Of a stretch of DNA of 64,000 nucleotides, positions 24,267 to 51,150 are shown piece by piece. The notes under the pieces were generated by a model. The model worked only from the letters and a program-made list of their open reading frames with translations, was not told where the DNA came from and did not search any database. Position 1 is the first letter of the stretch. Each line of letters opens with the position of its first letter. A program made the translations under genes and the position numbers. The DNA comes from Brachionus plicatilis (Eukaryota > Rotifera > Eurotatoria > Ploima > Brachionidae): positions 123,080 through 187,079 of the forward strand of contig QEOQ01000212.1 in assembly GCA_010279815.1 (NCBI GenBank), in the 5' to 3' direction.

Positions 24267-25940
24267 TTATTTTTTTGAAAATAAAAAAAAAGATACATCG
24301 TTGAATACAAATATACACATAATAAAAAATCCTTGCAAAGAACCAACAACTACATAGATATACCATAGAAATGAATATTTGTTGTTTATTACAGTGCTAA
24401 TGATCGCCAAAATCCAGCTGAGTCCAGTAATTACAAAAATCTTTAGAAACAAAACAATTCTGTTTTTTTGTGGCCCTTTTGACTGCAAGCTGGTGAACTT
24501 TTTAATATCCTTGTCCACATTTGAAATCAGTTTTATGCTTATGAGCATGAGAAAAATATTTTCAAATATTATTAGACTTACTGGCACTACAAAAAATATC
24601 CACAGATCAAAACTTGACGAAATAAAACAAATTCTGTAGCCATAAGATACTCGGTCATAGTTCTTAAAGATCATTGTCAAAGCTACAATGGCCGGAATTG
24701 ACCACCCACAAATACTGTATTTTAGAAAAGTGTTTTTTATGGATGATTGATGAAAACTATTGAGCATTTTGAATAAATCAATTGCCATTATATTTGACCA
24801 AATAAAAAAGCTCAGATAAAAGTAGTGAAGAAAAAAGCCAGACAAAAAACAGGGCAAAGATGGCACCAAAGCTTTGAACATGTCATTTATCGATTTATAA
24901 ATGCGATTATCAGTTAAAATTAGATCACTGTCAGTTAAAATTGACGAAATAATAAAACTCACATGAGAAAATATCATCGAAACACTTAGGCTAATTATAA
25001 TTTTTCCTGGCAATTTTTTATTCAATTTTTTAATAAAATAATAAACTATCAAAATAATTAAGCTTATAATAGATATCGACTGACCGGCTATGGTAATGTA
25101 TTTTTTCACCAAATCTGTCTCCTCGTCAAATTTAATTCTTGTGAAATTAATAAAATTTTTTTTCTCATGAACATTGGTCACATTCATTTCAATTATTATC
25201 TCATTTTTTAAATTTCTCAAGTCGAAAAGTATTTGTAGACTCATGTAATCAGCTAATCCACTTTCTATTTTAGAACATAATAAAAAGGTCTCTGGCTCAT
25301 TGCATCTTGCACAATATTCATTTTTATATAATTTTCCGAATATCGAGAATCTATATGCGGTGTAATTTGAACATAGTGAAATTATTTCCGAATTATTGAA
25401 ATTGTTCGGACAAGTGTCGATGTGTTTGATGCATTTCCTGGGCCAGGGCACACCATCCGGCTTGGAGACTTCAAAACCATGCCAAGGTTTTTTGATGATA
25501 TATTCCAAGATTGACACATTGTATTTCATATTGGTCTCAAGTGAAAAAAATTTCAGATCATTTATTTTTTCACTGTTTAAATTACATAGTGCACAGAAAA
25601 TATTTTTAAAAAATTTATTTGTTTCATAAGAATATACTGGAATTGACTGGATTATGGTGCTAGGCTCGAGAACACATTTAAGCATTAGTTTTTTGATTTT
25701 GTAGTTGTCGGGGCATTTGCCAATGGTGTAAATTGTGCCATAATTTTTTAGCTCTGAATTGCACTCGTAGTTGTAAAGAGTAGTTGTTGTTTTGGGTGTC
25801 ACATCAGAACAACAATCATCAAAAAGATCGCACTCGCTGCAAAAACAATTTTGGTATTTGGGCAGTGTTTTGTTAAAGCAAAAGTCATCACAAGCAAACA
25901 CAATTTTAAAATTAAAAAACAGGAGATAAAATATATTCAT
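24267..25940 (-). CDS. Class B 7TM receptor with somatomedin-B-like N-terminus, copy 1
   Basis: The 557-residue protein is intact and intronless. A signal peptide (about residues 1-16) precedes a somatomedin-B-like cysteine set (residues 17-44: C-x3-C-x10-C-x-C-x2-C-x5-CC). Further Cys-rich ectodomain follows to about residue 280. Seven membrane segments lie at roughly 282-303, 312-334, 361-385, 407-425, 445-470, 494-518 and 524-547. The sixth and seventh carry GLSWILAI and GSLQGFFI, as in secretin/adhesion/methuselah-type receptors. The conserved disulphide pair is probably C364 (top of TM3) with C438 (loop 2). No GPS autoproteolysis site is visible. The role is inferred: a plasma-membrane G-protein-coupled receptor with unknown ligand. 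A near-identical copy lies in opposite orientation at 49462-51150. The Met start is directly before the signal peptide in both copies. Confidence 0.9.
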   Translation of the reverse strand: MNIFYLLFFNFKIVFACDDFCFNKTLPKYQNCFCSECDLFDDCCSDVTPKTTTTLYNYECNSELKNYGTIYTIGKCPDNYKIKKLMLKCVLEPSTIIQSIPVYSYETNKFFKNIFCALCNLNSEKINDLKFFSLETNMKYNVSILEYIIKKPWHGFEVSKPDGVPWPRKCIKHIDTCPNNFNNSEIISLCSNYTAYRFSIFGKLYKNEYCARCNEPETFLLCSKIESGLADYMSLQILFDLRNLKNEIIIEMNVTNVHEKKNFINFTRIKFDEETDLVKKYITIAGQSISIISLIILIVYYFIKKLNKKLPGKIIISLSVSMIFSHVSFIISSILTDSDLILTDNRIYKSINDMFKALVPSLPCFLSGFFLHYFYLSFFIWSNIMAIDLFKMLNSFHQSSIKNTFLKYSICGWSIPAIVALTMIFKNYDRVSYGYRICFISSSFDLWIFFVVPVSLIIFENIFLMLISIKLISNVDKDIKKFTSLQSKGPQKNRIVLFLKIFVITGLSWILAIISTVINNKYSFLWYIYVVVGSLQGFFIMCIFVFNDVSFFLFSKK

Positions 25941-26126
25941 TTTATTTAAATGAGAAAAAAATAGGGATTTTTAAAGGTGTTAAAATTTGATATTAAATGC
26001 GTAATAAAATTTCTGAACAACTAATTGAAAATTTCATTTAAATATCACTGTATCATTTTAGATTAAAAGAAATCGGTTATGTTTCTGTTGAAATTTAATA
26101 TAAATCCAATTTGTTGTATTGAATTC

Positions 26127-26560
26127 TTACTGACTAAAAATGATACACTTTTCATTTTTGAAATTTATTATTTTACACTCATTCAGTTGGTAGCAACTGT
26201 TTAAACAGTGAATTAGATCAAAGCTCTTTAACTCTTTCAAAAGAGTTAATTGTAAAGTCTCTGAATCATAATTCCAAGTCTCAAAATATCCTTGAACATC
26301 ATTTTTGTTGTCAATTTTATTTGATAAGAAAAACCAATTTTCTTTAACAGGAACCTCCTGCAAAAATTCTGTTGAAACTTTTTCTAGTTTTATTATTGTT
26401 GGCATTGTTGTTTCAAATGTTTTTATGACATTAATTTTTCGTCTGTATAATATTTTATCTAAAAAGGACTTTGAATCTACTTCAACAATTTGTAATTCAA
26501 TTGAACCTTCTATCGGACATTTGAATACGAAATAAAATTTTTCAACTCCCAAACCAGTTC
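26127..26560 (-). CDS. Terminal exon of a secreted or surface protein with a PAN/apple-like Cys pattern
   Basis: An open frame of about 144 codons on the minus strand ends at a stop at 26127. It is preceded by a good splice acceptor (T-run then AG, exon starting at 26560 in phase 1), so it is probably a last exon rather than a whole gene. It has no signal peptide of its own. The C-terminus carries HCLNSCYQLNECKI and KNEKCIIF, a C-x3-C-x5-C-x10-C arrangement like PAN/apple modules. It ends 187 bp upstream of the 7TM receptor on the same strand, in a separate frame. Upstream exons were not established. The function is unknown. Confidence 0.5.
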
Positions 26561-26644
26561 CTAAAAAAAATTTTTAATTTCTGAACAAGCAACAGGATTT
26601 TGTTTTTGCTTGAAATTTCAATAAATTTATCAAAAAATTATTTA

Positions 26645-26769
26645 AATAATGATAAATTTATTTTTTCTTTATAAAAAATAATATTTAGATCATCAATTGC
26701 ATGAACTCTCCCAGGGACCAAAATAATATAAAATCCGAAATTTTTTTTCTAATATTCTGATTGCATCAC
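26645..26769 (-). pseudogene. Possible broken upstream exon
   Basis: After an acceptor-like TATTTTAG the minus strand reads DAIRILEKKF, then after a frame change in a T/A run GFYIILVPGRVHAIDDLNII and FYKEK to a stop. The composition is protein-like. It lies on the same strand just upstream of the PAN-like exon and could be an exon of the same gene that carries a frameshift, or an unrelated relic. Confidence 0.3.
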
Positions 26770-27082
26770 CTAAAATACACAATAAATTAATATTTTTTGA
26801 AATTTTCATAGCTAATTTTATTTTTTTTTAAATTTTTTATAGCATAATCAATTCTCAATTGTGCATTTATTTTTCTTGACAATCAAATTCAAATTTTGAC
26901 ATGCTATTAAGCTTTTAAAGAATGTTTGAATTTTCAAAATTTTTACTTTAAATTGCTTCTCAAGTAGCTTTTTTATGCAAGAATTTTTCAATAAGTTACC
27001 GATTTTGCCTCATCGATAAGACTACCACACAATTCTTTAAGTTACCGATAGAAAATATCGCTGACTTATCGATAATAACTAT

Positions 27083-28228
27083 CATTCATTTATCCCTCAA
27101 GGTAGCGTCCTAGGTCCGCTCCTGTTCGTCATCTTCATCAAAGACATTCCAGCGGCGGTCAGCCACCTATTCAAACTATTTGCCGATGACAGTAAACTGA
27201 TTGCCACAATAATCAGCACCAGTGACTTATCCACGCTGCAACATGACCTCGACGCACTCTCCGAGTGGTCAAACACGTGGCTTATGCTCTTCAACGTGAG
27301 CAAATGCAAGGCGATGAAATTCAGCAGGTCCGGAAAGAAAATCTACGCCCAATCCGAACTACTGATGGGGGATGACGAGTCCAGGAGCGCACTAGCTTTC
27401 GTCGACACAGAAAAGGATCTGGGAGCCACGTTTTCACGTAACTTGAAATTTTCCATTCATATTAAAAATAAAGTAAACAGAGCTACAGAAATTCTCGGCC
27501 AGTTGAAAAGATCATTTAGATATTGGACCATAGATACATGCAGGACCCTCTATTGTGCCTACGTAAGACACCACCTGTAATATGCCACTGTTGTCTGATC
27601 CCCCCCAGCAAGAAAGACGCAAAGATGCTCGGGCCACCAAACTGGTGCCCTGCATTAGAAACTGGCGCTACGATGACCGTCTTGCCGTCCTTAGTCTAAC
27701 TCCCCTTCATGAGCGCCGTGTTCGTGGAGACCTGATCCAGATGTCCAAACTCACCAAAGGCATCAACGAAGTGGGCTGGGTGTACCCCCCCCAGTTCCCG
27801 CAAGTTCACTATCCCAAACCGGACCCGCCAGTGGTATCAGAGGTCATGCAAGAAGACTGTCCGGCCAGGCCTCCACCAAATGTCTACAACGGACAAACAC
27901 ATTTACCAACAGGAAAGTCAACGTGTGGAACGCCCTGCCAGCTACAGTCACAGACGTCGACTAGGTCAACAAGTTCAAGAACGGATACGATGCCTTCCGG
28001 TCTAGTCAACAGTCTTAAACATGAACACTTATTTTTATAATTTTTCTTTTACAGCTTTTTCCATCTGTAATGTTAACTTTTATTTTGACCTAAAAATTTA
28101 AACAGTACTTCTTTTTTTTTCAGTACTTTCTATGTGTTATGTGCAAGGAGCTACCATAGGTGACCTCCTAGTAGGCCACCTTCGCAAGCTAGTTTTGCTG
28201 TAGCTAATATATATTATTATTATTATTG
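27083..28228 (+). mobile_element. 5'-truncated, GC-rich CR1/L2-type LINE fragment
   Basis: The element begins inside the RT palm (IPQGSVLGPLLFVIFIKDIP), has an intact catalytic motif LFADDSKLIA, continues as SEWSNTWLMLFNVSKCKAM and KDLGATFSRNLKFS, and ends with the typical C-terminal segment RATKLVPCIRNWRYDDRL and RRVRGDLIQMSKL (27600-27750). A 3' region follows, ending in (ATT)n near 28206-28228. Stops replace expected residues near 27578 and 27594, and a frame change follows them. Its G+C content is far above the surroundings and above the other LINEs in the window, which suggests a different and probably younger family. Confidence 0.9.
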
Positions 28229-28327
28229 CTTTTAGTTTTCGCTTATTTTCAATAAGCCTGACAAAAATCGATCTCCAAAGGTAAAATGTGGGGTTTATTA
28301 ATGAAGACGTGAATAAAAAATTAATGA

Positions 28328-28335
28328 AAATATCA
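28328..28335. repeat. Left target-site duplication AAATATCA
   Basis: Eight bases directly left of the foldback element at 28336; the same eight bases occur directly right of it at 29082-29089. Confidence 0.85.
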
Positions 28336-29081
28336 GGCATCTTGAAGTTGATGATCAATTCAAAATATCATTTCAATTCAAAAACTTTGTCTTGAGATAT
28401 TAAACTAAATCTTAGATTTAATTTAAATAATTGTAATGTATTATGCTTTACATGCAATGTAGATTTAGAAAATAAGAAAAAATTGAAAAAACATTTTCTC
28501 AATCCAATAATAAAATCGATTTTCACTTTAGTTAGCTGATTTTTTGTAAAGTTTCATTTTCATTTTATTACTAATTTGGAATTTTTTATTTGAATTTTTA
28601 TTTAAATTTAATTGTGAATGTTAACACAAATACTTTTGAAGGCAAAATGTAGAAAATTTTACATTTTTACATTTTCATATTTTTAGATTTTTTGTGCAAT
28701 ATTTCATAAAATTTATATTTTTAATTTTGGTAACTAAATAAATTAGAAGAGTTTTTTTTTTATTTTCTGAAATATTGCACAAAAAATCTAAAAATTTGAA
28801 AATGTAAAAATGTAAAATTATTTTCATTTTGCCCTTTTGAAATAAAAAATCTCAAATAAACTCTACAAAAAATCAGTTAATACATTTAAATATTAAAATC
28901 GATTATCAATGGACTGAGAAAATGTTTTTTCAATTTTTTTTTTATTTTCTAAATCTACATTGCATGTAAAGCATAATACATTACAATTATTTAAATTAAA
29001 TCAAAAAATTAGTTTAATATCTAAAGACAAAGTTTTTGAATTGAAATGATATTTTGAATTGATCATCAACTTCAAGATGCC
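28336..29081. mobile_element. hAT-like foldback MITE, GGCATCTTGAAGTT family, copy 1
   Basis: The ends GGCATCTTGAAGTTGATGAT and its reverse complement start two arms of about 350 bp that are nearly identical (for example TGCTTTACATGCAATGTAG at about 28448 and inverted near 28960). A perfect 8-bp target duplication flanks the element, as for hAT transposons. No ORF is present; non-autonomous. A second member with the same first 16 bases lies at 58182-58537, and a fragment of the core (TTTTAGATTT-TTGTGCAATAT) recurs near 51590. Confidence 0.9.
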
Positions 29082-29654
29082 AAATATCAAATGATTATAA
29101 GAAACAATTATTAATTTAAATGTAAATGTATTGCCTTTCTTTACGTTAATGCCTTACGTAAGATAAGAATATTTAAAAATAAGATAGATAAGATAGATGG
29201 TGCTGAATGTGTCAAAGTCGTTTTCTGATTTTTGAGGCTGAAAATTTAAACAAAGTTTGAGTGGGACTGCTGAATTTGATAACTAATTAGTAAGTCGAGT
29301 TTAAATGTTACAGCCAGAGACTGATTGTGTTGAGTTTCCCTTAATTTATTTGAAGCTTATTGCTTTAAAAAATTATTTAATCTATTTATATGTGAATTTG
29401 TTCGAGTCATGAATCCTTCAGAAAAAAATGAAGATAAACAGTTTACAGTCCATTTAACAATGTATTTAAAATTTAATTGAGTAAAAATTTTTAAATACGC
29501 TAGCATTTGACTTTTTTTTAATATTCAAAAAAGTTCTAGCTTAAAATTTTAAAAATTATTTAACTGCTTTCTTTAAATGACTGATTTTTTTAATCAGTTA
29601 AATAAAAATTGATTATGTTGACACATATTTTTTATTCTTGCTTTCATTTATATA

Positions 29655-30349
29655 CCGTATTCCCTTGTTCGATATTGCAGCCTTACAACCCGAAATACAA
29701 CTTTGGCGCAGGCAATAAATACCATCTCGCCCATGTTAAAAAATTCTTAACTTACACCGCATGCGTCAAAGTTGTATTTCGAGTCTTGGATCACGTTAAA
29801 AGTAAAGTTTTTTAATTTAATGCAGCATTAACATTAGAGTTTCTGTCATAAATAAAAAAAATTTATTTTTGAATTATGCATTTGGTGCAGGATCCCAAAT
29901 TAAACCGAAAAAAAAAAATTAGAAATGAATATTTTTATTATTCGATTTAAAAAAATACTAAAATTTGATTCTTTACGCGGCATTATTTTTTGAAAAAATT
30001 AAAATTGACTTGAAAAATTAATAAAAATTTAATTTTTAAAATATTTATCATATTTTTCAAGTCAATTTTAAATTTTTTCAAAAAATATGTCGCGTCAAGA
30101 ATCAAATTTTAGTATTTTTTTAAATCGAATAATAAAAATATTCGAAAAAATTTTTTTTTATTTATGACAGAAACTCTAATGTTAATGCTGCATTAAATTA
30201 AAAAACTTTACTCTTACGTGATCCAAGACTCGAAATACAACTTTGACGCATGCGGTGTAAGTTAAGAATTTTTTAACATGGGCGAGATGGTATTTATTGC
30301 CTGCGCCAAAGTTGTATTTCGGGCTGCAATATCGAACGAGGGGATACGG
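29655..30349. mobile_element. Foldback MITE, CCGTATTCCC family, copy 1
   Basis: The left end CCGTATTCCCTTGTTCGATA is inverted at the right end (ATCGAAC-AGGGGATACGG) with TA on both sides (29653-29654 and 30350-30351). The arms share GGCGCAGGCAATAAATACCA, CATGTTAAAAAATTCTTAAC and TGACAGAAACTC blocks. A block absent from the right arm (around GGTGCAGGATCCC, about 29885) lies only in the left arm. In copy 2 the same block lies only in the right arm. No ORF; the frames inside it are shadows. Confidence 0.9.
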
Positions 30350-30576
30350 TAATAATTATTGTTTTTAAAATTTAAATAAAAAAATTTAAATAAAAAAATT
30401 TAAAAAAATATTATATCTTTTTTGTAGTGGATGCCATTTTTCATGATATCAAATTTTGGTATCTAATTAATTTTAGTTGGTATCAAAATAATTGGCATCT
30501 GCTATCTAACACTTCTTTTTTGACACTTGTAAATTTTGTATTAAAACTAATCAAATATTAAAATAATTTAAAAAAA

Positions 30577-30777
30577 TCGACAAGTTATGGGTTTGTACGA
30601 CCTACCAATTTGTTAAATGCCAATGAATATTTCATAATGAATAAAAAATATATCTGTAAAAATATAATAGCATGCCGTGAAAAGGGCTTAGAATGGCATT
30701 CTAACTCTAAAGATGTCACCAAAAAAGGAATACACTGTCAGCTTTGTCGTTTCAACTGGTGGAAACTCAGCATGTAA
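30577..30777 (+). pseudogene. Coding relic with two CxxC-type Cys pairs, unrecognised
   Basis: A 66-codon frame reads RPTNLLNANEYFIMNKKYIC, then a C-x5-C pair and later HCQLCRFNWWKLSM before a stop at 30775. A second, acidic Ser-rich frame follows in a different phase (VQNVSSESDLDEQENLVPIV, about 30815-30885). The composition suggests a zinc-finger-bearing transposon or host protein exon. The first 64 bases recur at 31659-31724 with an extra stop, so part of it was duplicated. Family not recognised. Confidence 0.4.
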
Positions 30778-30923
30778 AAAACAATAAAGCTAAAGTTCCA
30801 GATCAAATCGAAGTTCAAAATGTTAGTTCTGAGTCTGATTTAGATGAACAAGAAAATTTAGTTCCGATAGTTAACACTCTAAAAAGACCCTGATTCAAAA
30901 AATAAAACATCGGCTCAAAAAAA

Positions 30924-31110
30924 GGAAAAATCTTAATACAATTATCTTCTGAATTACTAATAATTTATCAGTGTATTTTTTTTAATTTAAAAATATTAAG
31001 ATTTTTAAATTAAAAAAAAGGAAAAATCTTAATACAATTATCTTCTGAATTACTAATAATTTATCAGTGTATTTTTTTTAATTTAAAAATCTTAATATTT
31101 TTTAATTAAA
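30924..31110. repeat. Tandem duplication with 96-bp period
   Basis: The block starting GGAAAAATCTTAATACAATT at 30924 is repeated starting at 31020, with about 80 bases essentially identical. Confidence 0.9.
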
Positions 31111-31658
31111 TTATTTGATAAGAATTTTGCTGTTTTGGTACCTTTGAACTTAAATTAGACATCAATAAAAAATTTAAGTGTTTAATTTATGGGCTATGTT
31201 AAAAAAGCAATTTGATCGATTTATTTTTAATTTTTAAATAAACAATTTTGCAAAGATTTTATTTTGTGTTCATGAAGGTTATAATAAGTGAACTGAATCT
31301 TTTCTACTAATAAATAAAATTTATTGGTTATCAATTATTATTTTTATTTTGCCTATTGCTGTATTGAGGTTGGACAAAGATTAAAAAAAAGAATTTAAAA
31401 TGTTTTATACTTTGAGGAGTGTATTTTTAAATTTCAGTACCAGCTTGCGTTTGCGAGACTTAAGGCATTTATCGATATTACTCGTTTTTTTATTGTTAAA
31501 AGGTTTACTTGGGTTTAATTTAATTTTATCTCAATATGATCTTAATCGTAGTAATTATTTTTTAAAATTTTTTAAAAAATGCTTATTAGATTTTTTTAAA
31601 AAGATTATTTTTAAATTCTAGTATCTTGAGATTTCTTATGATAAAATTGAAAAAAAAT
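31111..31658. other. AT-rich DNA without a gene
   Basis: An open frame at 31400-31621 (plus) is Phe/Leu-rich. It begins with FYTLRSVFLNFSTSLRLR, but the rest looks like translated AT-rich DNA. Nothing supportable. Confidence 0.35.
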
Positions 31659-31726
31659 TTGTTAAATGCAAATGAATATTTCATAATGAATAAAAAATAA
31701 ATCTGCAAAAATATAATAGCATGATT

Positions 31727-31804
31727 TATATCTACATTTATAGTCTATCATTTATAGTCTATCATTTATAGTATATCATTTATAGTATATATCTACATTT
31801 ATAG
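31727..31804. repeat. Short minisatellite, 14-bp unit
   Basis: Units like TCTATCATTTATAG are repeated about five times with small changes. Confidence 0.8.
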
Positions 31805-32109: not shown

Positions 32110-34845
32110 TCACTTAGTTAAATTAGTCATAACAGAAATTAGAATTATTAAAAATAAATACACCACAAAAAATCTAGTATTCTTACCATTTGATTCGTGT
32201 GTATAACTTATTTCACAAAATTTTATTTCCAATTTGAAAATTTCTGATTGATTCGACAAAAGAGTACAATACAAATTTTGATCTTGGTATATTTCTGCTT
32301 TGTCACACACGAAATTTGCTTTAAAATAAAAATTTATTATTATTTTCATTTTTTTTTAAAAAGATGAGATTTTTAGTGATTGTGAAATTCTCTACAAATG
32401 GACCAATTTGAAAAAAAAATTTCCTTTTTTATAGCTTAAAATAAAAGATTATAAAATTTAAAAAGATGCGTCTCAAAAGATGATTGACACTTAACATATA
32501 CCTTAAATATTTGTTTTTTAGCGTTGCACTAAAAGCCCAAGAATTTAGATTTGGTGCCTTAAAAAAAAAGTTTTTTCGACTTAATAAAAAATCAAAACTG
32601 AAAATTTCGTCATTAAGTTGTCTTCCAGTTGCATAGATTTTCACCTTTGCTATCTTAAGTCTTGAAAAATTCAATTTTTTCGAGGCAACAAAACCAAATT
32701 CTTGGGCTTTTAGTGCGACGTTAAAAAACAAATATTTACGGTAGTTTTTTATTTTTAATTAATTTCCAATGATCTATATATCAATTTGTAGAGGAGAAAA
32801 AACTAAATCATTTGATGTAAAGATTTTTTTTTAAGATCATCTTTAAGGAAGTTATGAGTAACAGAAGTAGACATTCTAAAAAAGTACCAAAATAGTTTCG
32901 AGTTATTTTAAATTTGGAAGATTTAATTTAAAAAAAAATTGAAAAACTTTTCAATTATTAGCAATCATTTAAAAAAAATTCGAAAAAAAATCTTATACCC
33001 GAATATCTTACTTATAAGCCGAAAGGCTTTTGAAGTTGAATATTTTTTCTTTTTTTCTCCTTTTTTTAATTCTTGAGAAATAATTTTGAATTCGAAGTTT
33101 TATATTTAGAAGAAAACCTAGATAATTAAAAATTTTAATAAAATAATGCTGATCCAAACAACTGAAAAATTCTGTAAAATAAATAATAATTAATTTAATT
33201 TATTTGATTTGGATGAATTAATTTAACAAACGATAAAAAATGGGGGCAAATTGAAGTTTCAGATCAAATTTTAAGATCAAAAGGATCATTTAAAATTTTA
33301 AAGCTTAAATAATCTAAAGATTTTAATAATTTTTAAGTAATAAATACTAAACATTACTAGACATGTTATGTCTAATAATAGTTCATTACCATATTAACAT
33401 CAAAATGATTGATCTCTAATTTATTTAACAAAAACAATCAATAATTTAAATAATTCAAGTCAAGTTAATTCACAAATTCAAATTTATAACTTTTATATCC
33501 ATTCATTCAAACTGAAATAATTTTATTTTTCTACTTCAATAAATTTAAAATTTTAAAACAGTTAATTTTTTTGTCTTTAAAAATAAGTTTTCATTAAAAT
33601 CAATTTAAATATTTAAATTGATTTTAAAGTTCATTTTAAATAAAAAGGGACATTTTAAAATTTTAAATATGAAAATAAACTTGACATGACATGTCAAGTA
33701 AATGCTTTTGAAAAAATTAATTTTTTCTCTTTTATTAAAAAAAATATTAAAATTTATATTTTGATCTTTTGATTTTGATCTCAAACTTCAATTTGCCAAA
33801 ATGGGATCCTTTTTCCAAAAAATTTTCCAAACAAGTTTCTCTTTTTCAAAATCAGAGTAAGTCAAAAGTCTTAAGTCAAAAATTGTCTTATTAATGATTC
33901 ATCTATCAATTTTCGTCGATTAATCTTTTTTTTTTTAACTGGGATTTAAAAATAGCAAATATTTAAAATTATAAAAAAAAAAATTACAAAATAAACTGAA
34001 CCATAAAAAAAGAAGAAGAGCTACAATTGAAGAGAAGAAGAGGTCAACTAAAAGAAACTCGTTCAGTAAAAAACCAAACAAGATCAATTGATTATTTTTT
34101 TGAGAAAATATTTTTAAAAATTTCATAAACATACCATTAACTTCGAAAATAAATACTCCACTTTGATTTACATTACTAAATTGGTTGATTGAATCAAACT
34201 TGTTAGAAGAAAGAAAACTTTCCAAACTTTCGTAGTTTGTAGTATGCCTTAGATTTATTTCAGAACATGGAAAACCTAAATCCCCGTAGCTGAAGATCAC
34301 AAATGATCTAAATTCATCTGATATTGATATTATTTGAAATGAGACTGTAGAATTTATAGCTTGATCTAAACTTCTAATATTAAACCAAGTTAAAACAAAA
34401 GCATTAGTTGGAATAAATCTAACTCCATATCTATCACCGAATTGTGCTTGGATTAATTCTTTCATATTCTCCAACTCAGAAGGACGGTTTACATAGCTTT
34501 GGTAAAAAATACTCCCATTCCCGAACTTGTTTGTCATCATTGACCGGTAAATGTTTATGTAAAAATCAGGTGATTTAAAACCAATATAACCAAATTGGCT
34601 CATAAAAAAACTATCATAATAAATATTCAAATAAGGAAATTTAAAGCCAAATTCATATTTATTAAACTCAATGTCAGTTTTGGAAAGTTCGATATCTCCT
34701 TTCCCGATTCCATAATCAAAAATAAGTTCTTAAATTTAATAATTGAATTGAGAATTTTCTAAAAACATGGACTGAACTTACCTGCCGTTAGCGGATTTTC
34801 TTTTATTAGAAGAATAATTAGAAGTAAAAAATATTTTTTCATCAT
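32110..34845 (-). CDS. NIDO-domain single-pass membrane protein, three exons
   Basis: The model joins exon 1 (34845-34782), exon 2 (34728-34135) and exon 3 (32318-32110). It totals 867 nt, giving 288 residues. Exon 1 is a clean signal peptide (MMKKYFLLLIILLIKENPLT) ending at a GTAAGT donor; intron 1 is 53 bp. Exon 2 is a nidogen-like NIDO domain (LIFDYGIGKGDIELS, then PTNAFVLTWFNI and SFVIFSYGDLGFP), ending at a GTATGT donor in phase 1. Intron 2 is 1.8 kb. Exon 3 starts after TTTTAAAG with two bases that complete the codon. It encodes a short Cys-containing stretch and a C-terminal membrane segment (FFVVYLFLIILISVM). NIDO domains are extracellular modules of nidogen, mucin-4-like and sushi-nidogen proteins. 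Uncertainty: exon 2 can also be read on without splicing to a stop at 33935, giving a hydrophobic tail. The phase match and Cys content favour the three-exon model. Confidence 0.7.
32504..32738. mobile_element. Small foldback element in the NIDO gene's second intron
   Basis: The left part TAAATATTTGTTTTTTAGCG, GCACTAAAAGCCCAAGAATT is repeated in reverse at the right end (AATTCTTGGGCTTTTAGTGC, then TTAAAAAACAAATATTTA). The loop is about 120 bp. No clear target duplication. The 100-codon frame across it is a by-product of the palindrome. Confidence 0.8.
32745..33040. repeat. Member of the dispersed repeat family seen at 2.05-3.11 kb
   Basis: Shares ATCTTTAAGGAAGTTATGAG and the AAGCCGAAAGGCTTTTGAA region with that composite. 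Lies directly next to the foldback element at 32504-32738, inside the NIDO gene intron. Confidence 0.55.
33245..33797. mobile_element. hAT-like foldback MITE, GGCAAATTGAAGTTT family, copy 1
   Basis: Ends GGCAAATTGAAGTTTCAGAT and the inverse (ATCTCAAACTTCAATTTGCC, to 33797) are flanked by a perfect 8-bp duplication AAAATGGG (33237-33244 and 33798-33805). A central palindrome CTTGACATG-ACATGTCAAG lies near 33680. No ORF. Related partial copies are at 54596-54995 and 62136-62330. It lies in intron 2 of the NIDO gene. Confidence 0.9.
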
Positions 34846-35439: not shown

Positions 35440-35713
35440 AAAAATTACATCTTCAAATGCCTGTTTTAACTCAAAAAATTTTTAAAAAAATCTGAAAAGA
35501 TGTTCTTCTTCTAGATTTATTACAGGCTCGAACTCCTTTACATGCTCAGTGTCTACATCTAACCGAAGCACCGGGCCTATATACACTGCAAGTACTAAAT
35601 ATAAATTAAATCCAAAAAATTGGTCCGATTTTTTATATTTTATTCCGGGCAAACCCCTTATTCACAATATTTTTAACAGGATTATTCAATTTTTTTAACA
35701 TGCAAAATGATTA

Positions 35714-36411
35714 CCGTATTCCCATGTTCGATATTGCAGCCTTACAACCCGAAATACAACTTTGGCGCAGGCTAGAAATACCATCTCGCCCATGTTAAAA
35801 AATTCTTAACTTACACCGCAAGCGTCAAAGTTGTATTTCGAGTCTTGGATCACGTTAAAAGTAAAGTTTTTTAATTTAATGCAGCATTAACATTAGAGTT
35901 TCTGTCATAAATAAAAAAAAATTTTTTCGAATATTTTTTTTATTCGATTTAAAAAAAATACAAAAAATTTGATTCTTGACGCGGCATATTTTTTGAAAAA
36001 ATTTAAAATTGACTTGAAAAATATGATAAAAATTTAATTTTTAAAATATTTATCATATTTTTCAAGTCAATTTTAATTTTTTCAAAAAATAATGCCGCGT
36101 CAAGAATCAAATCTTAGTATTTTTTTTAAATCGAATAATAAAAATATTCATTTCTAATGTTTTTTTCGGTTTAATTTGGGATCCTGCACCAAATGCATAA
36201 TTCAAAAAAAAATTTTTTTATTTATGACAGAAACTCTAATGTTAATGCTGCATTAAATTAAAAAACTTTACTTTTAACGTGATCCAAGACTCGAAATACA
36301 ACTTTGACGCTTGCGGTGTAAGTTAAGAATTTTTTAACATGGGCGAGATGGTATTTATTGCCTGCGCCAAAGTTGTATTTCGGGTTGTAAGGCTGCAATA
36401 TCGAACCGTGG
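35714..36411. mobile_element. Foldback MITE, CCGTATTCCC family, copy 2
   Basis: The left end CCGTATTCCCATGTTCGATA is preceded by TA (35712-35713). The right arm is intact to ATATCGAACC but its last bases are damaged (CGTGGTA). Arms and core match copy 1 closely, including GGCGCAGG and TGACAGAAACTC. The GGTTTAATTTGGGATCCTGC block is in the right arm here. Confidence 0.85.
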
Positions 36412-43871: not shown

Positions 43872-43874
43872 TTA

Positions 43875-44108
43875 CCAGAGTTGTTTAAAAGTCCAAAAAA
43901 AAAAGTCCGGACTTAAAAATTTTAAAAAAATAAGTCCAAGTCCAGAAGAAATTTATGGTAAAATTGCAACAAAATTCAGATATATGGCAAATCTATTGCA
44001 TTAGACAACCCAAGAGTATATACATTTTTTGATATGAAGCCTGATCTAGCAAATTTTTAAAAAAATTCTGGACTTGGGCTTTATTTTGGGACTTTTAAAC
44101 AACTCTGG
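43875..44108. mobile_element. Foldback MITE, CCAGAGTTGTTTAAAAGTCC family, copy 1
   Basis: Ends CCAGAGTTGTTTAAAAGTCC and GGACTTTTAAACAACTCTGG are perfect 20-bp inverts with TA on both sides (43873-43874, 44109-44110). The core includes AAATTGCAACAAAATTC and TTGCATTAGACAACCC, also found in the second copy at 55217-55584. No ORF. Confidence 0.9.
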
Positions 44109-44176
44109 TAAATAATCATATGACATTGTCCAATTACGCCCAGTAAAATCTAAAACCTTATTTAAAATTTTCCTAC

Positions 44177-44522
44177 TTAATGTATCGTTACTGGAAGAAT
44201 TTGGTTTATAGCTTCCACTTGTCCAGATTCTTGTAAATTAGCTTCTATGTTATTATTTACTTTTTTCAAATTGTTAATATATTTTACACAGTGTTCCGGG
44301 GTTAAATTTTTTTGAAAAGATCGAATTGACTCAACAGCTTCTTCGATGGTTTTTATATTTCTTTTCCTCACATAAGTTTTCAATTCACTCCATATTATCT
44401 CTATAGGGTTTAAATCAGGCGATTTTGACGGAGACTTAACCTGAGAAAATTATAAAAAAAGAAATAAAAAAAAAGGTTTTATTTTACCCAAAGCACCCCG
44501 TATCTCTCTAAAAACATTTTGC
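44177..44522 (-). pseudogene. Tc1/mariner transposase C-terminal half, inverted copy
   Basis: The minus strand reads CKMFLERYGVLW, then a likely 51-bp intron (GTAAAATAAAACC... to ...TTTTCTCAG), then VKSPSKSPDLNPIEIIWSEL, KTYVRKRNIKTIEEAVESIR and LTPEHCVKYINNLKK. SPDLNPIExxW carries the third catalytic residue of Tc1/mariner DD(E/D) transposases. After LKK the reading departs from the plus-strand copy. It pairs with the plus-strand copy at 44527-44735 as a large palindrome with a loop of about 120 bp. Confidence 0.8.
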
Positions 44523-44526
44523 ATAA

Positions 44527-44735
44527 ATTGAAAACTTATGTGAGGAAAAGAAATATAAAAACCATCGAAGAAGCTGTTGAGTCAATTCGATCTTTTCAAA
44601 AAAATTTAACCCCGGAACACTGTGTAAAATATATTAACAATTTGAAAAAAGTAAGTAATATTAATTGAGAGAAAGAAAATTAATATTTTGTAATAGACCA
44701 TTAAGATTGTCATTGAAAATAATGGTGAATGGTCG
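44527..44735 (+). pseudogene. Tc1/mariner transposase C-terminus, plus-strand copy
   Basis: Starting at 44527 the plus strand repeats LKTYVRKRNIKTIEEAVESI and HCVKYINNLKK. A GTAAGT donor follows, then an intron of about 45 bp ending in AATAG, then TIKIVIENNGEWSNH and a stop. This gives a natural transposase C-terminus, so the plus copy is likely the original orientation. Its catalytic region is missing because it begins at the inversion junction. Confidence 0.75.
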
Positions 44736-45267
44736 AACCACTGAAATAATATTATTTTTAATTAAAACTAATTTGTAAATAATATACCATGAATTTGTTT
44801 TAAAAATAGCGTAAAATTTATATATTCATATATTTTTCTAATAAAAATTAAAAATAATTTTAATAAAAAATTTACTTTTTTCTAGATTATCCTAAAAAAG
44901 TTAAAAATTTACACAATTTTACATTAAAAAATAAAAAAATTTACTAAATTTTACGTAAATTTACGTAAATTTTTATTTAAATGGTAAAAAGTAGAAAGTC
45001 GATGAAAAAGCAGAATTGTAACCTTTTTTTCAAAAAATCATAACTTTTTTGTCCCTTTTTGATTTTACGCAAATTTACGTAATTTTACGTAATTTTACGT
45101 AAATTTAAAATTTTGGTAAAAACAAGTGAACAGAACGGGACTGTATGATCTAGATTCGCATAATATTTTTTTTTTGTTTTCAGTTTCTTTTTCATAAGTG
45201 TAAGAACATTCCTGAGTTTTCAGACTGTTGATTAAAATAAGATCTAATTCATTTAGTATTATTAATA

Positions 45268-46607
45268 AGTATTACCAGCTGTCTGTGTAAATTACTTGAA
45301 CGAATTATTTATTCAAGAATATACAGTTTTTTGGAAAACAACTCAATGTTAATTCAGGAACAATCCGTTTTTAGAAAACATCGAAGAACCATATTTAACC
45401 TAGTTTTTCTAATTCAAAAAATCGTCGAATCTTTTAATAAAAAAAAAAAAGTCTGATCATTATTTTTTGACATTTCCAAAGCCTTTGACAAGGCTTGGGA
45501 TGAGGGTTTAATTCATTAACTTATAAAGATGAACATATCTGGCTATTTAATATATTGGATTAAATCATTCTTTGATTCAAGAAAATTCAGAGTAAATATA
45601 AACGATCAATTAAGTTATGAGTTCAATATAACAGCAGGTGTTCCTCAAGGATCAGTTATTAGTCCTTTATTATTTAGTATATTTATTAATAATATTCCTA
45701 AAAGAAGAAAATCAAATAATAAATACTTCCTTCTCTTTGCTGACGAATTTTCCACTTTCTTCATATATGAAAAAATGGCTACCTAGAAAGTAAGATGAAT
45801 GGATGCATAGGTGAATTAGAAAAGTTGCTTTACAAGTGGAAAATGAAGATATCAGTCATGTTCAGTAATTATTTCCTAAAAAAAATATTGAAAAAACCTT
45901 TTTTTACCCAAGAATATATGGAAATAAAATCGAAAGCCAAAAAGAAATTTAGTTTTTTGGGATTAAATTTGATAGTAAATTAACCTTTGCTTCAATGATA
46001 GAAGATATTAAAGAACGTTGTAATTCTAGGTTGAATTTAATCAAAATCTTATCAAACGAAAAATGGGGCCTTAAATTTAACACATTAGGCAACCTTTACA
46101 AGTCTTTGATTGGATCTATCTTGGATTATTCTTTTCCAAGAAAGATCCCATCAAAAAGTTAAAAGTAATTCAAAATTCAGCGGTTCGTTCTATTCTAAAA
46201 CTTAAATACGATACTTCTTCAAATATTTTGAATCAAGAGGCATACAATCAAACTCAAACTACTTACAATCTCAAATCGACTCTGTGAGTTGAGTGAAAGA
46301 TATATAAGGGCAGGACTTAGTAATTCTTTTCCATTGGTTCTAAGACTAATGGAAGAATTTAAAGCAAGCTTCGAATCAAGATTTATGGAATATCCAACTT
46401 GTGTAATTGCTACCTAACAATTTCTAATTTAATTTTTAAATCTAATTTTTAATATTGCGCTATTTTTTTACTTATCTTATTTTACTTTATTTTTTTTTAT
46501 TTTATATTTTAATACTAATTTTTTTAACTTTATTTTGATTTTTTTTTTAATTAATCTGAAGGAGCTTTAGCTCAGTACAGATACGCAAATAAATAAAATA
46601 AAAATAA
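45268..46607 (+). mobile_element. 5'-truncated Jockey-type LINE
   Basis: The plus strand begins inside RT (ITSCLCKLLERIIYSRIYSF), continues with SKAFDKAWDEG (about 45480), ISGYLIYWIKSFFDSRKFRV, ITAGVPQGSVISPLLFSIFI and LLFADEFSTFF (about 45737), then FLGLNLIVN and a C-terminal region ending ASFESRFMEYPTCVIAT near 46410. The catalytic FADD has become FADE. Stops and frame changes are frequent. The 3' region ends with a GAGCTTTAGCTC hairpin (46562-46573) and an A-rich (AAATA)n tail to 46607. It abuts the minus-strand LINE head to head at about 45267. Confidence 0.85.
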
Positions 46608-46791
46608 TCTCTTTTATCTAGGAGATTTATCATTTAATATATAATCAATTAATATTTTGCGATTAAAATTTAAAATCTCTTTAAAGATCTGAACTCATCG
46701 TTGTTTTAAAATGCGATTAAATTTTTTAAAAAATTAAAAACCAATTGAAATTAAAGCCAAAATTCACTAATAACGGCAACGAGACAATATA

Positions 46792-47381
46792 CAGTCAATC
46801 CTCCGTATAACGAGGCCCTATATAACGAGAAACCCTTTATAACGAGCAACTTGGCTAGAATCGATTACGAGCTATAGAAAAAGATATAAAAATTAATTCG
46901 ATATAACGAGTTTCGATAAAACAAAAACTTGATATAACGAGCTTATAATGAAATACCGCTTAATCATTTTCTTAAGAATAAAAACTTCCTATAACGAGCT
47001 TGAACAAAAGAAATTTTTTCACACTTTTTATATAAAAAAAAAAAATAAAAATAAGACAATTAACTTATCTTCATGAATAACTATAAATCACCAGAAAAAA
47101 TTTCCTATCTAATTGTTTATAAAAAATTTCCAATCTTAATCAAAAAAAATTTTGTTTAATATTGAAAATGTTGTGATTGAAAAATGTAATACCAAACAAA
47201 CATCTATTAAACATTTTGAAAAAAAACAGTAATTTTGTATTTTTTTTCCTTTTTTATTTATTTTTTTACCAATAAACATTTTGAAAAAAAAATTTTTTTG
47301 CCCATCTTTTTCAATGCAATTTCGATATAACGAGCAACGAAATTTCCGCCCAACTTGCTCGTTATATCGAGGATTGACTGT
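46792..47381. mobile_element. pogo/Tigger-type MITE
   Basis: Ends CAGTCAATCCTCCGTATAAC (46792) and the inverse (GTTATATCGAGGATTGACTG, to 47381) match at 21 of 23 positions and are flanked by TA (46790-46791, 47382-47383). TATAACGAG-type subterminal repeats occur seven or more times near the left end and again at the right end. At 590 bp with no transposase it is non-autonomous. The CAGT end and TA target fit pogo/Tigger. Confidence 0.9.
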
Positions 47382-47383
47382 AC

Positions 47384-47875
47384 CGAAAAAAAAGATTTGA
47401 TATTTTTGAATTTTTTTGGGTTATTTGATCAAAAAAACGCCGAAATTTTAGATTATAACATGGTATGCATTGGTAAAAAAAATGACTGGCTAAAAAATGC
47501 TCGTTGCAAAAAATAAATGCAATTATTTTTTTAAATTAAAATTAATGAAATTGAAAAGATTTTACTTTAACGAATTTTTAACATTTTTTTACAAAATTTT
47601 ACGATTTTTTACCTCAATTTCATAAAATTTTTAAAAAAAAAAAGTAGAAAATTTTCAAAACAATCCAAAATTTTAATTTTATTTTGCTCATAATTAAAAA
47701 AAAAAAAAAAAAATTAAAATGAATTTCAAAAATTTTCAAAAAAATTATAAAATTTCAATTTTCATTTTTTTTCTTCTTTTTATTTCAAACTCTGCTTCTC
47801 CCTGCTTCCTTTTTACCTCAGACTTTTTCCTGTTCTGCGCTCTGAAGTTGTGGCATACTTATCATTTCTCTCTAG
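47384..47875. other. AT-rich DNA without a gene
   Basis: Includes a 16-17 base A run near 47697-47713. No element end or coding frame can be tied to it. Confidence 0.4.
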
Positions 47876-48625
47876 TCATAAAATGCTGCTTGTATTTTCT
47901 GCAGCATTCATCGTCTCCACATAGCATGTGACCACTATTAGAATAATTAACTTATCCTCCTCATTTAAGATGGTTACACAGACTGGGCATGCCATACATT
48001 TGTGATTATGACCAATAACTTCCTTGCACAGTCTGCAATTTTCATGATGGACCAGGTATTCAACAATCTGTTGTGCGAACTCATCCTCTTTTAGTCCCGT
48101 TTTGCAACTAAAAATAGGGACAACTGCCGGGCGAAAAGTCAGTAGGTTTTGAGCTTCTTCAATCTTCCTTATTTCCTCCCCAGAATTTTTGCAAGTTTTT
48201 GTCATTTGTCAAGTGTTTGTGTTCATTTCCTCTTGTTCATTACAAATGGTACACTTTCTCTCGCTGACCAACATTTCTGGGGCGAACCTCTATATCATTT
48301 GATTAAAGAATTCCATTTCGGCTCCACTTTCTTCATACAGCTTTTTCCACCATGACCAGGCTGTTATCCTTTAAGCCCCATCTTTAGTCCCATGCCAACC
48401 ACTTGATCACCATCCTAACGCACTATATTGGACTTCGTGCCCCATCACTCCTTCCTCCTCCAGCATAATTGCTTCCATAGTGAACACAATTTCGTAAATT
48501 TCAAAAATAAAAATTTAAAAAAAAATCATCCTAGGTTTTCCTCGTTTCTCTTTTTGTGTAGGCAGATTTTTATTGTCAAGGTCCGGAAGAATCACTGCCC
48601 TGTTCTCAGACTCTGCAAACTGATT
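47876..48625 (-). pseudogene. Unidentified Cys-rich protein pseudogene
   Basis: A single minus-strand frame can be followed for 250 codons with only about five stops, in DNA clearly richer in G+C than its surroundings. Readable parts are AESENRAVILPDLDNKNLP, MEAIMLEEEGVMGHEVQYS, WWKKLYEESGAEMEFFNQMI and a KCTICNEQ pair. The longest open part (48205-47876, 109 codons) carries C-x2-C-x7-H-x3-C-x2-C-x2-C (CRLCKEVIGHNHKCMACPVC), which could bind zinc. The frame is kept across all the stops, which points to point-mutation decay of one exon or a processed copy. I do not recognise the family; a transposon or virus-derived protein is possible but unproven. Confidence 0.5.
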
Positions 48626-48984
48626 AATATTATATTAACTGAACATTTAATTATTATTTTTGAAATTATTACTATTTTTTTGAATTATTTTACTGAATAA
48701 TTTACTGCAGATTAAAATACTTTTGCTGAGAAAATTCAATAAATTTACTGAAAATATAAATATTTTTTCTATTTCTTTTTAATTAATTTACTGAAGTATA
48801 TTTAATGATTAAATATACATTATTTTACTGACCATGTAATATTTTGTCAAGATTTATTTATTTAAAAACAAAATAGACTTTTATTTAAAATTATTATGGT
48901 TAAATAAAGAACATATTTAAAAAAAATTTATTTCTAGTAAACAATTCCAGCCTCTATATTGATAAAAATAAAACAAAAGAATTG
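48626..48984. other. AT-rich DNA without a gene
   Basis: Several TTACTGA-type words repeat between 48640 and 48840, giving a loose tandem look. Nothing else is seen. Confidence 0.35.
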
Positions 48985-49065
48985 TAGAATACAAAGCAGA
49001 TTTCGAATCAAGATTTTTTGCGAACCCGCTCCATTGTGTAATTGCTCTTTTGCTATCTTTTTTTT
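48985..49065 (+). pseudogene. LINE C-terminal fragment
   Basis: The plus strand reads EYKADFESRFFANPLHCVIA, matching the last coding segment of the LINE at 45268-46607 (ASFESRFMEYPTCVIAT). This is a scrap of LINE 3' end just upstream of the second receptor gene. Confidence 0.6.
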
Positions 49066-49461
49066 CTTTCTTGAGCCCTTCAATTTGAAAGCATGTAGTT
49101 TTTATCATTCTTTATATCAATATTTCTATACTAAACAAAATGATAAAAGCCATTTATATGAAGAAATTCCACAATGAATTTTTCTAGAAAGGCGAAACAA
49201 AATAATTTTTTTAAATTTGAGACAGTAAAATTTTGAGTCATTTGTTTGATTGCAACAAGGTACGATGCCAACCCTATAAATTATTAATTCAGTAACATAA
49301 CACTTAAACTATTACTTATCATAATTAAACTGATGATAAAATTGATGCACTAGCGGATTGAGATTAAAATTAATCTTTCAAAAATGTTTTTAAAATTTTT
49401 AAGGTATTTAATTTCCAAATTTAAAACCTTAAAAATCACTAAATTTTTTTTTCTCAATAAA

Positions 49462-51150
49462 ATGAATATTTTTTATCTACTGTTTTTTAATTTTAAAATT
49501 GTGTTTGCTTGTGATGACTTTTGCTTTAACAAAACACGGCCCAGATACCAAAATTGTTTTTGCAGCGAATGTGATCTTTTTGATGATTGTTGTTCTGATG
49601 TGACACCCAAAACTACAACTACTCTTCACAACTACGAGTGCAATTCTGAGCTAAAAAATTATGGCACTATTTACACCATTGGCAAATGTCCCAAAAGCTA
49701 CCAAATTAAAAAAATAATGCTTAAATGTGTTCTCGAGCCCAGTACCATAATCGAGTCGATTCCGGTGTATTCTTATGGGACAAATAAATTTTTTAAAAAT
49801 ATCTTTTGTGCACTATGCAATTTAAAAAGTGCTAAAACAAGTGATTTGAGATTATTTTCAATCGAGACCAAAATAAAGTATAAGGTATCAATATTGGAGC
49901 ACAGAATTAAGAAACTTTGGCATGGTTATGGAGTCCACAAGCCAGATGATGTACCCTGGCCCAGAAAATGTATCAAACACATCGACACTTGTCCGAACAA
50001 TTTCAATAATTCGGAAATAATTTCACTTTGTTCAAATTATACAGCATATAGATTTTCAGAATCAGGAAAATTATATAAAAATGAATATTGTGCTAAATGC
50101 AATGAGCCATTCTCTACTTTAGCTTGTTCTAGGACAAAATTTTCATTTGTCGATTACATGAGTCTACAAATACTTTTCGACTTGAGAAATTTAAAAAATG
50201 AGATAATAATTGAAATGAATGTGACCAATGATCATGAGAAAAAAAATTTTGTCAATTTCACAAGAATCAAATTTGACGAGGAGACAGATTTGGTGAAAAA
50301 ATACATTACCATAGCCGGTCAGTCTATATCTATAATAAGCTTAATTATTTTGATAGTTTATTATTTTATTAAAAAATTGAATAAAAAATTGCCAGGAAAA
50401 ATTGTAATTAGCCTAAGTGTTTCGATGATATTTTCTCATGTGAGTTTTATTATTTCGTCAATTTTAAGTGACAGTGATCTAATTTTAACTGATAATCGCA
50501 TTTATAAATCGATAAATGACATGTTCAAAGCTTTGGTGCCATCTTTGCCCTGTTTTTTGTCTGGCTTTTTTCTTCACTACTTTTATCTGAGCTTTTTTAT
50601 TTGGTCAAATATAATGGCAATTGATTTATTCAAAATGCTCAATAGTTTTCATCAATCATCCAAAAAAAACACTTTTCTAAAGTACAGTATTTGTGGGTGG
50701 TCAATTCCGGCCATTGTGGCTTTGACAATGATCTTTAAGAACTATGACCGAGTATCTTATGGCTACAGAATTTGTTTTATTTCGTCAAGTTTTGATCTGT
50801 GGATATTTTTTGTAGTGCCAGTAAGTCTAATAATATTTGAAAATATTTTTCTCATGCTCATAAGCATAAAACTGATTTCAAATGTGGACAAGGATATTAA
50901 AAATTTCACCAGCTTGCAGTCAAAAGAACCGGAAAAAAACAGAATTGTTTTGTTTCTAAAGATTTTTGTAATTACTGGACTCAGTTGGATTTTGGCGATC
51001 ATTAGCACTGTAATAAACGACAAAAATTCATTTTTATGGTATATATATATAGTTGTTGGTTCTTTGCAAGGATTTTTTATTATGTGTATATTTGTATTCA
51101 ATGATGTATCTTTTTTTTTACTAGTAAAAAAAATAATAGGGAGAAGATGA
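49462..51150 (+). CDS. Class B 7TM receptor with somatomedin-B-like N-terminus, copy 2
   Basis: The 562-residue intronless protein has the same layout as copy 1: signal peptide 1-16, somatomedin-B-like Cys set 17-44, Cys-rich ectodomain to about 280, then seven membrane segments with GLSWILAI and GSLQGFFI. I start at 49462 rather than at the in-frame Met at 49384, because 49462 puts the signal peptide at the N-terminus as in copy 1. The extra 26 residues are Lys/Phe/Leu-rich leader-like translation. All ectodomain Cys are kept. About forty of some fifty substitutions against copy 1 fall in the ectodomain. The C-terminus differs (LLVKKIIGRR instead of LFSKK). Similarity extends only a few tens of bases upstream of the start and ends at the 3' end of the CDS. 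Ligand and coupling are unknown. Confidence 0.9.
   Translation: MNIFYLLFFNFKIVFACDDFCFNKTRPRYQNCFCSECDLFDDCCSDVTPKTTTTLHNYECNSELKNYGTIYTIGKCPKSYQIKKIMLKCVLEPSTIIESIPVYSYGTNKFFKNIFCALCNLKSAKTSDLRLFSIETKIKYKVSILEHRIKKLWHGYGVHKPDDVPWPRKCIKHIDTCPNNFNNSEIISLCSNYTAYRFSESGKLYKNEYCAKCNEPFSTLACSRTKFSFVDYMSLQILFDLRNLKNEIIIEMNVTNDHEKKNFVNFTRIKFDEETDLVKKYITIAGQSISIISLIILIVYYFIKKLNKKLPGKIVISLSVSMIFSHVSFIISSILSDSDLILTDNRIYKSINDMFKALVPSLPCFLSGFFLHYFYLSFFIWSNIMAIDLFKMLNSFHQSSKKNTFLKYSICGWSIPAIVALTMIFKNYDRVSYGYRICFISSSFDLWIFFVVPVSLIIFENIFLMLISIKLISNVDKDIKNFTSLQSKEPEKNRIVLFLKIFVITGLSWILAIISTVINDKNSFLWYIYIVVGSLQGFFIMCIFVFNDVSFFLLVKKIIGRR

What the first reader, a model, noticed from the sequence alone, without database searches (positions are those of the whole stretch)
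24267..51150. Inverted duplicate 7TM receptors with an SMB-like N-terminus diverge mainly in the ectodomain
Two intact intronless class B receptors (24267-25940 minus, 49462-51150 plus) differ at roughly 40 positions in the first 275 residues but only about 10 in the 7TM core. All ectodomain cysteines are kept. A cluster of 11 changes in about 22 residues lies just before the conserved DYMSL. This suggests positive selection on ligand binding, or gene conversion that homogenises the 7TM half. A somatomedin-B-like module on a secretin-type 7TM core without a GPS site is not a layout I know as a standard family.
Basis: partly seen in the sequence, partly recalled or inferred. Interest (0 to 1): 0.75.

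Follow-up and report, generated by a model that had tools for sequence, protein, structure and literature searches.

The report
Gene-converted pair of rotifer receptors
Two old, neighbouring copies of a cell-surface receptor gene in what is very probably a rotifer (a microscopic aquatic animal) have had their membrane-spanning halves copied over one another while the middle of their outer, probably signal-binding, parts stayed different; the receptor type and this way of evolving are both already known elsewhere.

Summary
Two intact ORFs (A, 24267-25940 minus; B, 49462-51150 plus) differ at 42 residues in 1-275 and 9 in 276-551; all 18 ectodomain cysteines are kept. The genome is Brachionus or very near it. 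Silent sites show the same contrast: A-B dS is 0.33 (ectodomain) against 0.06 (7TM), while A against a third paralogue (L003) is flat, 0.46 against 0.50; dN/dS is 0.26 and 0.29. This points to partial gene conversion between old paralogues, not positive selection. Residues 231-552 and, less fully, 1-74 (with the SMB-like part) look converted; 75-230 escaped. A 14-codon hypervariable linker (217-230) is not demonstrably selected.

The layout is not new: SMB plus 7tm_2 is published for Nematostella NvX, planarian PARF1 and some Methuselah-like receptors. The SMB-like piece is degenerate: 7 of 8 cysteines, no Pfam hit. TLR1/TLR6 is a close precedent for the pattern. New member of a known kind; modest interest.

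The parts
24267..25940 (-). Receptor A, 557 aa, single open frame, signal-peptide-like start (by eye), class B 7TM
49462..51150 (+). Receptor B, 562 aa, single open frame, class B 7TM
25719..25940 (-). A residues 1-74 (signal-peptide-like start and SMB-like part): low A-B divergence block, 4.5% nt
   Evidence: change-point
49462..49683 (+). B residues 1-74: the same low-divergence block
25251..25718 (-). A residues 75-230: unconverted block (14.8% nt in 75-216, 50% in 217-230)
49684..50151 (+). B residues 75-230: unconverted block
24285..25250 (-). A residues 231-552: converted block (2.4% nt), pre-TM region and 7TM core
50152..51117 (+). B residues 231-552: converted block
25803..25892 (-). 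A SMB-like Cys cluster, residues 17-46 (C-x3-C-x10-C-x-C-x2-C-x5-CC)
   Evidence: no Pfam SMB hit
49510..49599 (+). B SMB-like Cys cluster, residues 17-46
   Evidence: no Pfam SMB hit
25581..25763 (-). A Cys module 1 (residues 60-120, ends FKNIFCALCN)
49639..49821 (+). B Cys module 1
25275..25433 (-). A Cys module 2 (residues 170-222, holds YKNEYCARCN)
49969..50127 (+). B Cys module 2
25251..25292 (-). A hypervariable linker, residues 217-230
50110..50151 (+). B hypervariable linker, residues 217-230
24321..25103 (-). A 7tm_2 domain (residues 280-540)
   Evidence: E 2e-23
50299..51081 (+). B 7tm_2 domain (residues 280-540)
   Evidence: E 5.1e-24
25941..26047 (-). A 5' flank, homologous to B and L003 flanks, not closer to B than to L003
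49359..49461 (+). B 5' flank, homologous to A and L003 flanks, not closer to A than to L003

Best explanation
A and B are old paralogues, about as old as their split from a third copy (L003), of a rotifer secretin/adhesion-type receptor family. Supported by sequence: gene conversion between A and B has more recently homogenised residues 231-552 (7TM core) and, less completely, residues 1-74 (signal-peptide-like start and SMB-like cluster). Residues 75-230, mostly two tandem cysteine-rich modules, kept their original divergence under ordinary purifying selection apart from a weakly constrained linker at 217-230. Inferred: both proteins are plasma-membrane receptors whose Cys-rich modules bind extracellular ligands and whose near-identical 7TM cores couple to the same G proteins, so the two would differ in ligand but share output. 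Without a detectable GPS/GAIN they would not use adhesion-type autoproteolysis; with almost no C-terminal tail they may escape tail-phosphorylation/arrestin control. No ligand or expression has been tested.
For: A-B dS 0.330 in ectodomain and 0.063 in 7TM; A-C 0.455 and 0.496; B-C 0.524 and 0.464. Synonymous changes by half: A-B vs A-C Fisher p = 3.6e-5; between halves A-C p = 0.66 and B-C p = 0.51 (counts rounded). Change-point BIC chooses four blocks for A-B and no ectodomain/7TM step for A-C or B-C. Longest run of A=B at 110 silent variable sites is 22 (codons 273-406), reached in 5 of 10,000 shuffles. The 7TM protein tree joins A and B at 99/97; the 75-230 tree leaves A, B and C an unresolved fork. 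5' flanks are homologous (0 of 500 shuffles for each pair) but A-B identity (89/117) is no higher than A-C (88/122) or B-C (93/118), so the duplication looks old. A B. plicatilis protein (P0033) matches A's ectodomain at 98% and B's at 85%, so the A type also exists in another assembly. Whole-genome DNA search with B's middle segment finds only A, B and L003, so no fourth donor was seen.
Against: The 3' flanks show no detectable homology in any pair, so only the 5' flank speaks to age. In 75-230 the AU test does not exclude A+B as sisters (p = 0.41); the best tree puts A with C at weak support 56/33. For residues 1-74 the best tree does not hold A, B and P0033 together (AU p = 0.051, 74 columns, long-branch warning), so conversion of that block rests on nucleotide divergence alone; the 7TM tree also carries a long-branch warning (P0009). 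One genome and one outgroup DNA sequence only; no B-type orthologue was found (one hit, P0033). The ligand and coupling statements have no experimental support.
Confidence: 0.82

Rival explanations
1. Positive (diversifying) selection on ligand binding caused the ectodomain contrast after a recent duplication.
For: 12 changes in residues 209-230; A-B nonsynonymous excess in 205-232 relative to the rest of A-B (Fisher p = 0.010) and of the ectodomain (p = 0.008); pn above neighbouring ps in 217-230 for A-C (binomial 0.007, Fisher 0.020) and A-B (0.038, 0.069).
Against: Silent sites show the same contrast; whole-ectodomain dN/dS 0.26. B-C shows no excess in 217-230 (0.56) and a lenient all-neutral scan gives P = 0.82. 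The segment ranks second in variability of 549 14-residue windows across 23 family members, as expected of a loose linker. Small compensated indels could explain part of it: a gapped alignment scores slightly above the ungapped one (A-B 120 against 115).
Confidence: 0.08
2. A and B are a recent duplicate, and the middle (75-230) of one of them was imported by conversion from another, unseen, paralogue.
For: The middle is about as divergent between A and B as either is from L003.
Against: 5' flanks are also as divergent as to L003; no donor seen in the genome; P0033 shows A's middle in another assembly.
Confidence: 0.1
3. Assembly artefact: two haplotypes of one locus placed in inverted order on one contig.
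For: Copies 93% alike and inverted on one contig; the source is presumably a diploid animal (recalled).
Against: Homology of the two copies ends about 100 bases upstream and within about 20 bases of the stop, and divergence is block-like, not uniform.
Confidence: 0.03

Closest known systems
NvX receptors of Nematostella and PARF1 receptors of Schmidtea (SMB plus 7tm_2)
   Same: Secretin/adhesion-type 7TM with an N-terminal somatomedin B domain, one in all PARF1 but one (PMC3261222, passages)
   Different: Here the SMB lacks one cysteine and falls below Pfam detection; NvX and PARF1 sequences themselves were not compared
Methuselah/Methuselah-like receptors (Mth/Mthl)
   Same: 7tm_2 core without a detected GPS; SMB domains reported in three non-arthropod homologues (PMC4768249); B. 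plicatilis relatives bear the names Mth-like 1 and Mth2 in their source
   Different: No Methuselah_N hit; all 24 PDB matches are adhesion receptors, none a Methuselah ectodomain, whose structure is recalled to be in the PDB. PMC4768249 reports no Mth/Mthl in Rotifera, so these either escaped that search or fall outside its definition
SMB + PF28443 + 7tm_2 proteins (coral P0022; unnamed-source P0034, P0037)
   Same: Same order: SMB cluster, YKNxxCAxCN motif(s), 7tm_2
   Different: They carry a Pfam SMB above cut-off (E 4.1e-7, 4.9e-9, 1.8e-5) with C-x3-C spacing, where 18 of the 19 N-termini aligned have C-x2-C
TLR1/TLR6 of mammals
   Same: Gene conversion homogenises the C-terminal, transmembrane and signalling part of neighbouring receptor paralogues while N-terminal sequences stay distinct (PMC2077338, abstract)
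   Different: Unrelated protein family; there recurrent in nine mammals, here one genome was tested

Membership tests
Secretin/adhesion (class B) 7TM, Pfam 7tm_2 | 7tm_2 core above curated cut-off | tested here: met
   83.4 and 85.3 bits against cut-off 20.6; the model's first matches are adhesion GPCRs ADGRG2 and ADGRF1
Somatomedin B domain | Pfam PF01033 above cut-off | tested here: not met
   No PF01033 row for A or B at E up to 10, HMMER's filters on; close relative P0004 12.4 bits, E 0.2, cut-off 23.1
Somatomedin B domain | Eight cysteines with a CC pair (consensus recalled) | tested here: not met
   Seven of eight; C-x2-C in place of C-x3-C; after CC the next Cys is 16 residues on
Somatomedin B domain | Homology to SMB of receptor relatives | tested here: met
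   Profile of 19 N-termini of the close family vs 8 (of 9 cut) more distant relatives: probability 95.7, E 9.7e-9, 25 columns. Of those 8, P0022 and P0034 pass the Pfam cut-off, P0036 equals it, P0021, P0035 and P0044 fall below, P0023 and P0043 have no SMB row
Somatomedin B domain | SMB fold | tested here: inconclusive
   Residues 16-55 predicted with block pLDDT 43-56; the profile found no solved SMB
Adhesion GPCR (strict) | GPS/GAIN domain | tested here: not met
   No GPS or GAIN row among Pfam matches of A or B
Secretin hormone receptor | Hormone-binding (HRM) ectodomain | tested here: not met
   No such row among Pfam matches of A or B
Methuselah (arthropod type) | Methuselah_N ectodomain, ten cysteines | tested here: not met
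   No Methuselah_N row; ectodomain has 18 cysteines
NvX/PARF1 receptors | Direct sequence kinship to those proteins | not tested
   Only the paper's passages were read; sequences not fetched
Gene-converted paralogue pair | Sharp block of low silent divergence absent from control pairs | tested here: met
Gene-converted paralogue pair | Tree conflict between blocks | tested here: inconclusive
   7TM A+B 99/97; middle unresolved, A+B not rejected, p 0.41; residues 1-74 not resolved, p 0.051
Kazal-type domain (for the Cys modules) | Kazal homology or fold | tested here: inconclusive

The most novel reading that the evidence does not exclude
In monogonont rotifers a lineage of tail-less SMB/Methuselah-like receptors uses partial gene conversion as a lasting device: a shared signalling core and SMB-like cap are kept alike between paralogues while the tandem Cys-module region is exempt and specialises for different ligands, as in TLR1/TLR6. 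The Cys module itself may be a diverged Kazal/follistatin-like fold not yet described as a receptor's ligand-binding unit.
Probability: 0.2. Interest if true: 0.5.

Novelty: new member of a known kind. Interest (0 to 1): 0.3.

Why it matters
It shows that an apparent 'ectodomain under positive selection' is, at silent sites, a gene-conversion mosaic: a warning for reading receptor duplicates by protein identity alone. It also places SMB/Methuselah-like receptors with a two-module ectodomain in rotifers, a phylum for which a 2016 survey reported no Mth/Mthl members (PMC4768249), and points to an orphan receptor pair with one signalling core and two outer faces.

Tried and rejected
Retroposition as the cause of the pair: the seven full-length paralogues found in this genome are each a single open frame, so the intronless look is a family trait, and 5' flanks are shared. 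Hidden 3' exon for a C-terminal tail: the open frames end after GATGTATCT (A, B) or GATGTGTCA (L003), not a consensus donor (consensus recalled); not excluded. Compensated small indels in 217-230: BLAST aligns A and B without gaps over 1671 bases, but under the scheme a gapped alignment scores slightly more than the ungapped one in all three pairs (A-B 120/115, A-C 74/65, B-C 91/85); not excluded. PDB search with the SMB-like profile gave one unrelated chain at E 0.65. PDB search with the Cys-module profile (24 of 47 cut fragments) gave nothing below E 0.18. Foldseek with the ectodomain model gave nine matches, best E 0.81. Whole-genome search for PF01033 gave nothing, but its 14 controls gave nothing either, so it shows nothing. 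No Kazal relation could be established (the separate module profiles scored lower still, probability 0.4 and 0.9). Papers: I judged the searches by their listings; no listed title or shown abstract is about these rotifer receptors. The motif itself was not searched in papers, and listed rotifer papers that mention GPCRs (for example PMC7721884) were not opened. PF28443 appears only as a precomputed label; its name was not available. PMC4768249 was read in parts 1 and 2 of 3; PMC2246102 and PMC3261222 in passages; PMC2077338 in abstract and section list only.
Full report
What is there. The window lies in an unnamed 102.9 Mb genome, contig C82. The named best relatives of the receptors are from Brachionus; the copy L003 is 98% identical (538/549) to the B. 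plicatilis protein P0003, so the source is that species complex or very near it (inference). Two single-frame receptor genes lie in inverted orientation, A at 24267-25940 minus and B at 49462-51150 plus. Pfam gives only 7tm_2 above cut-off for both.

There are 42 amino-acid differences in residues 1-275 and 9 in 276-551; the densest 22-residue window is 209-230 with 12; all 18 ectodomain cysteines are kept. But the SMB-like end is almost unchanged: residues 1-74 hold 3 differences, 75-230 hold 37, 231-551 hold 11.

Selection or conversion. By counting (Nei-Gojobori style, with L003 = C as outgroup), A-B dS is 0.330 in codons 1-276 and 0.063 in 277-end, with dN/dS 0.26 and 0.29. A-C dS is 0.455 and 0.496, B-C 0.524 and 0.464. 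The drop in the 7TM half is therefore special to the A-B pair and alike for silent and replacement sites. A BIC change-point model splits A-B into codons 1-74 (4.5% nt), 75-216 (14.8%), 217-230 (50%) and 231-552 (2.4%); A-C is split only around 216-231 and B-C not at all. The longest run of A=B among 110 silent variable sites is 22, reached by 5 of 10,000 shuffles; among all 315 variable sites it is 28, reached by 2 of 10,000.

Age of the pair. The 130 bases upstream are homologous in all three copies (0 of 500 shuffles reach the score of any pair) and A-B (89/117) is no closer than A-C (88/122) or B-C (93/118); downstream there is no detectable homology in any pair. Protein trees were built from 10, 10 and 9 chosen rows. 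In codons 75-230 A, B and C form an unresolved fork (best tree A with C, support 56/33; A+B not rejected, AU p 0.41). In 231-550 A and B join at 99/97. In 1-74 the best tree does not hold A, B and P0033 together (AU p 0.051; 74 columns, long-branch warnings). So the branching order is open, and conversion of the 1-74 block rests on its low nucleotide divergence. A partial B. plicatilis protein, P0033, matches A's ectodomain at 98% (241/247), B's at 85% and L003's at 74%, so the A type exists in another assembly too. A B-type ectodomain was not found in the protein database (one hit, P0033), nor a fourth copy of the middle in the genome (three places).

The cluster before DYMSL. Codons 217-230 have 17.1 nonsynonymous and 3.9 synonymous A-B differences. 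Relative to the neighbouring silent rate this is a nominal excess for A-B (binomial 0.038, Fisher 0.069) and A-C (0.007, 0.020), none for B-C (0.56, 0.58); a lenient scan that takes the whole segment as neutral reaches the A-B count in 82% of runs. Across 23 family members this stretch ranks second in variability of 549 windows and carries indels; small compensated indels may contribute. I read it as a weakly constrained linker between the last module cysteine and the conserved SLQILFDL stretch; selection there is not excluded.

Family in this genome. Two protein queries, P0002 and P0015, find the same set: A, B, L003 and L004-L007 full length, L008 with ectodomain only, and the distantly related L009; P0015 adds one weak match on C31 (E 3.7e-5). 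Only the best candidates are scored, so this is a lower bound. In the alignment of 23 proteins (16 of the 23 hits, plus A, B and five loci), A, B, L003, P0003, P0004 and P0005 keep 3-15 residues after the last TM7 asparagine column; of the other 17, sixteen keep 17-49 and P0009, a likely chimaeric annotation, 149.

Literature. SMB with a secretin-type core is published: NvX and PARF1 (PMC3261222, passages), amphioxus adhesion receptors (PMC2246102, passages), and three Mth/Mthl homologues (PMC4768249, parts 1-2 of 3). The last reports no Mth/Mthl in Rotifera. TLR1/TLR6 (PMC2077338, abstract) is the closest precedent found for conversion confined to the transmembrane and signalling side.

Verdict. 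Observation confirmed; conversion supported; positive selection not supported; layout known. Function (different ligands, same output) is inference.

Noticed in passing
L008:1429-2337: Ectodomain-only copy of L007 (96% nt over 961 bases), breaking off before TM1 and ending in 28 unrelated residues and a stop. Over 271 shared codons 9 nonsynonymous and 6 synonymous changes, ratio 0.39: a secreted decoy or a young partial copy.
   Followed up: partly
24267-24285 and 51115-51150: Receptors A, B and their closest relatives have almost no C-terminal tail after TM7 (3-15 residues, 6 of 23 aligned proteins).
   Followed up: partly
window 51816-60624 (minus): Gemin5-like gene (GEMI5 TPR and WD40 propeller open frames) converging on receptor B about 0.65 kb downstream.
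   Followed up: no
window 33935-34729 (minus): Nidogen-like (NIDO) domain open frame between the two receptors.
   Followed up: no
window 26127-26573 (minus): Open frame with a sub-threshold PAN-like match (E 0.006) just upstream of receptor A, same strand.
   Followed up: no
window 29653-29868, 35712-35927, 36200-36406: Repeat of about 205 bases, 97-99% alike, direct and inverted copies between the receptors.
   Followed up: no
window 12941-14483, 16934-17365, 27065-27580: Mobile-element-like open frames: Helitron-like N-terminus with DUF6570, endonuclease-reverse transcriptase and RVT_1.
   Followed up: no
P0009 (B. calyciflorus protein): Receptor annotated with a sub-threshold reverse-transcriptase piece at its C-terminus (PF00078 E 3e-4); probably a gene-model fusion.
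   Followed up: no
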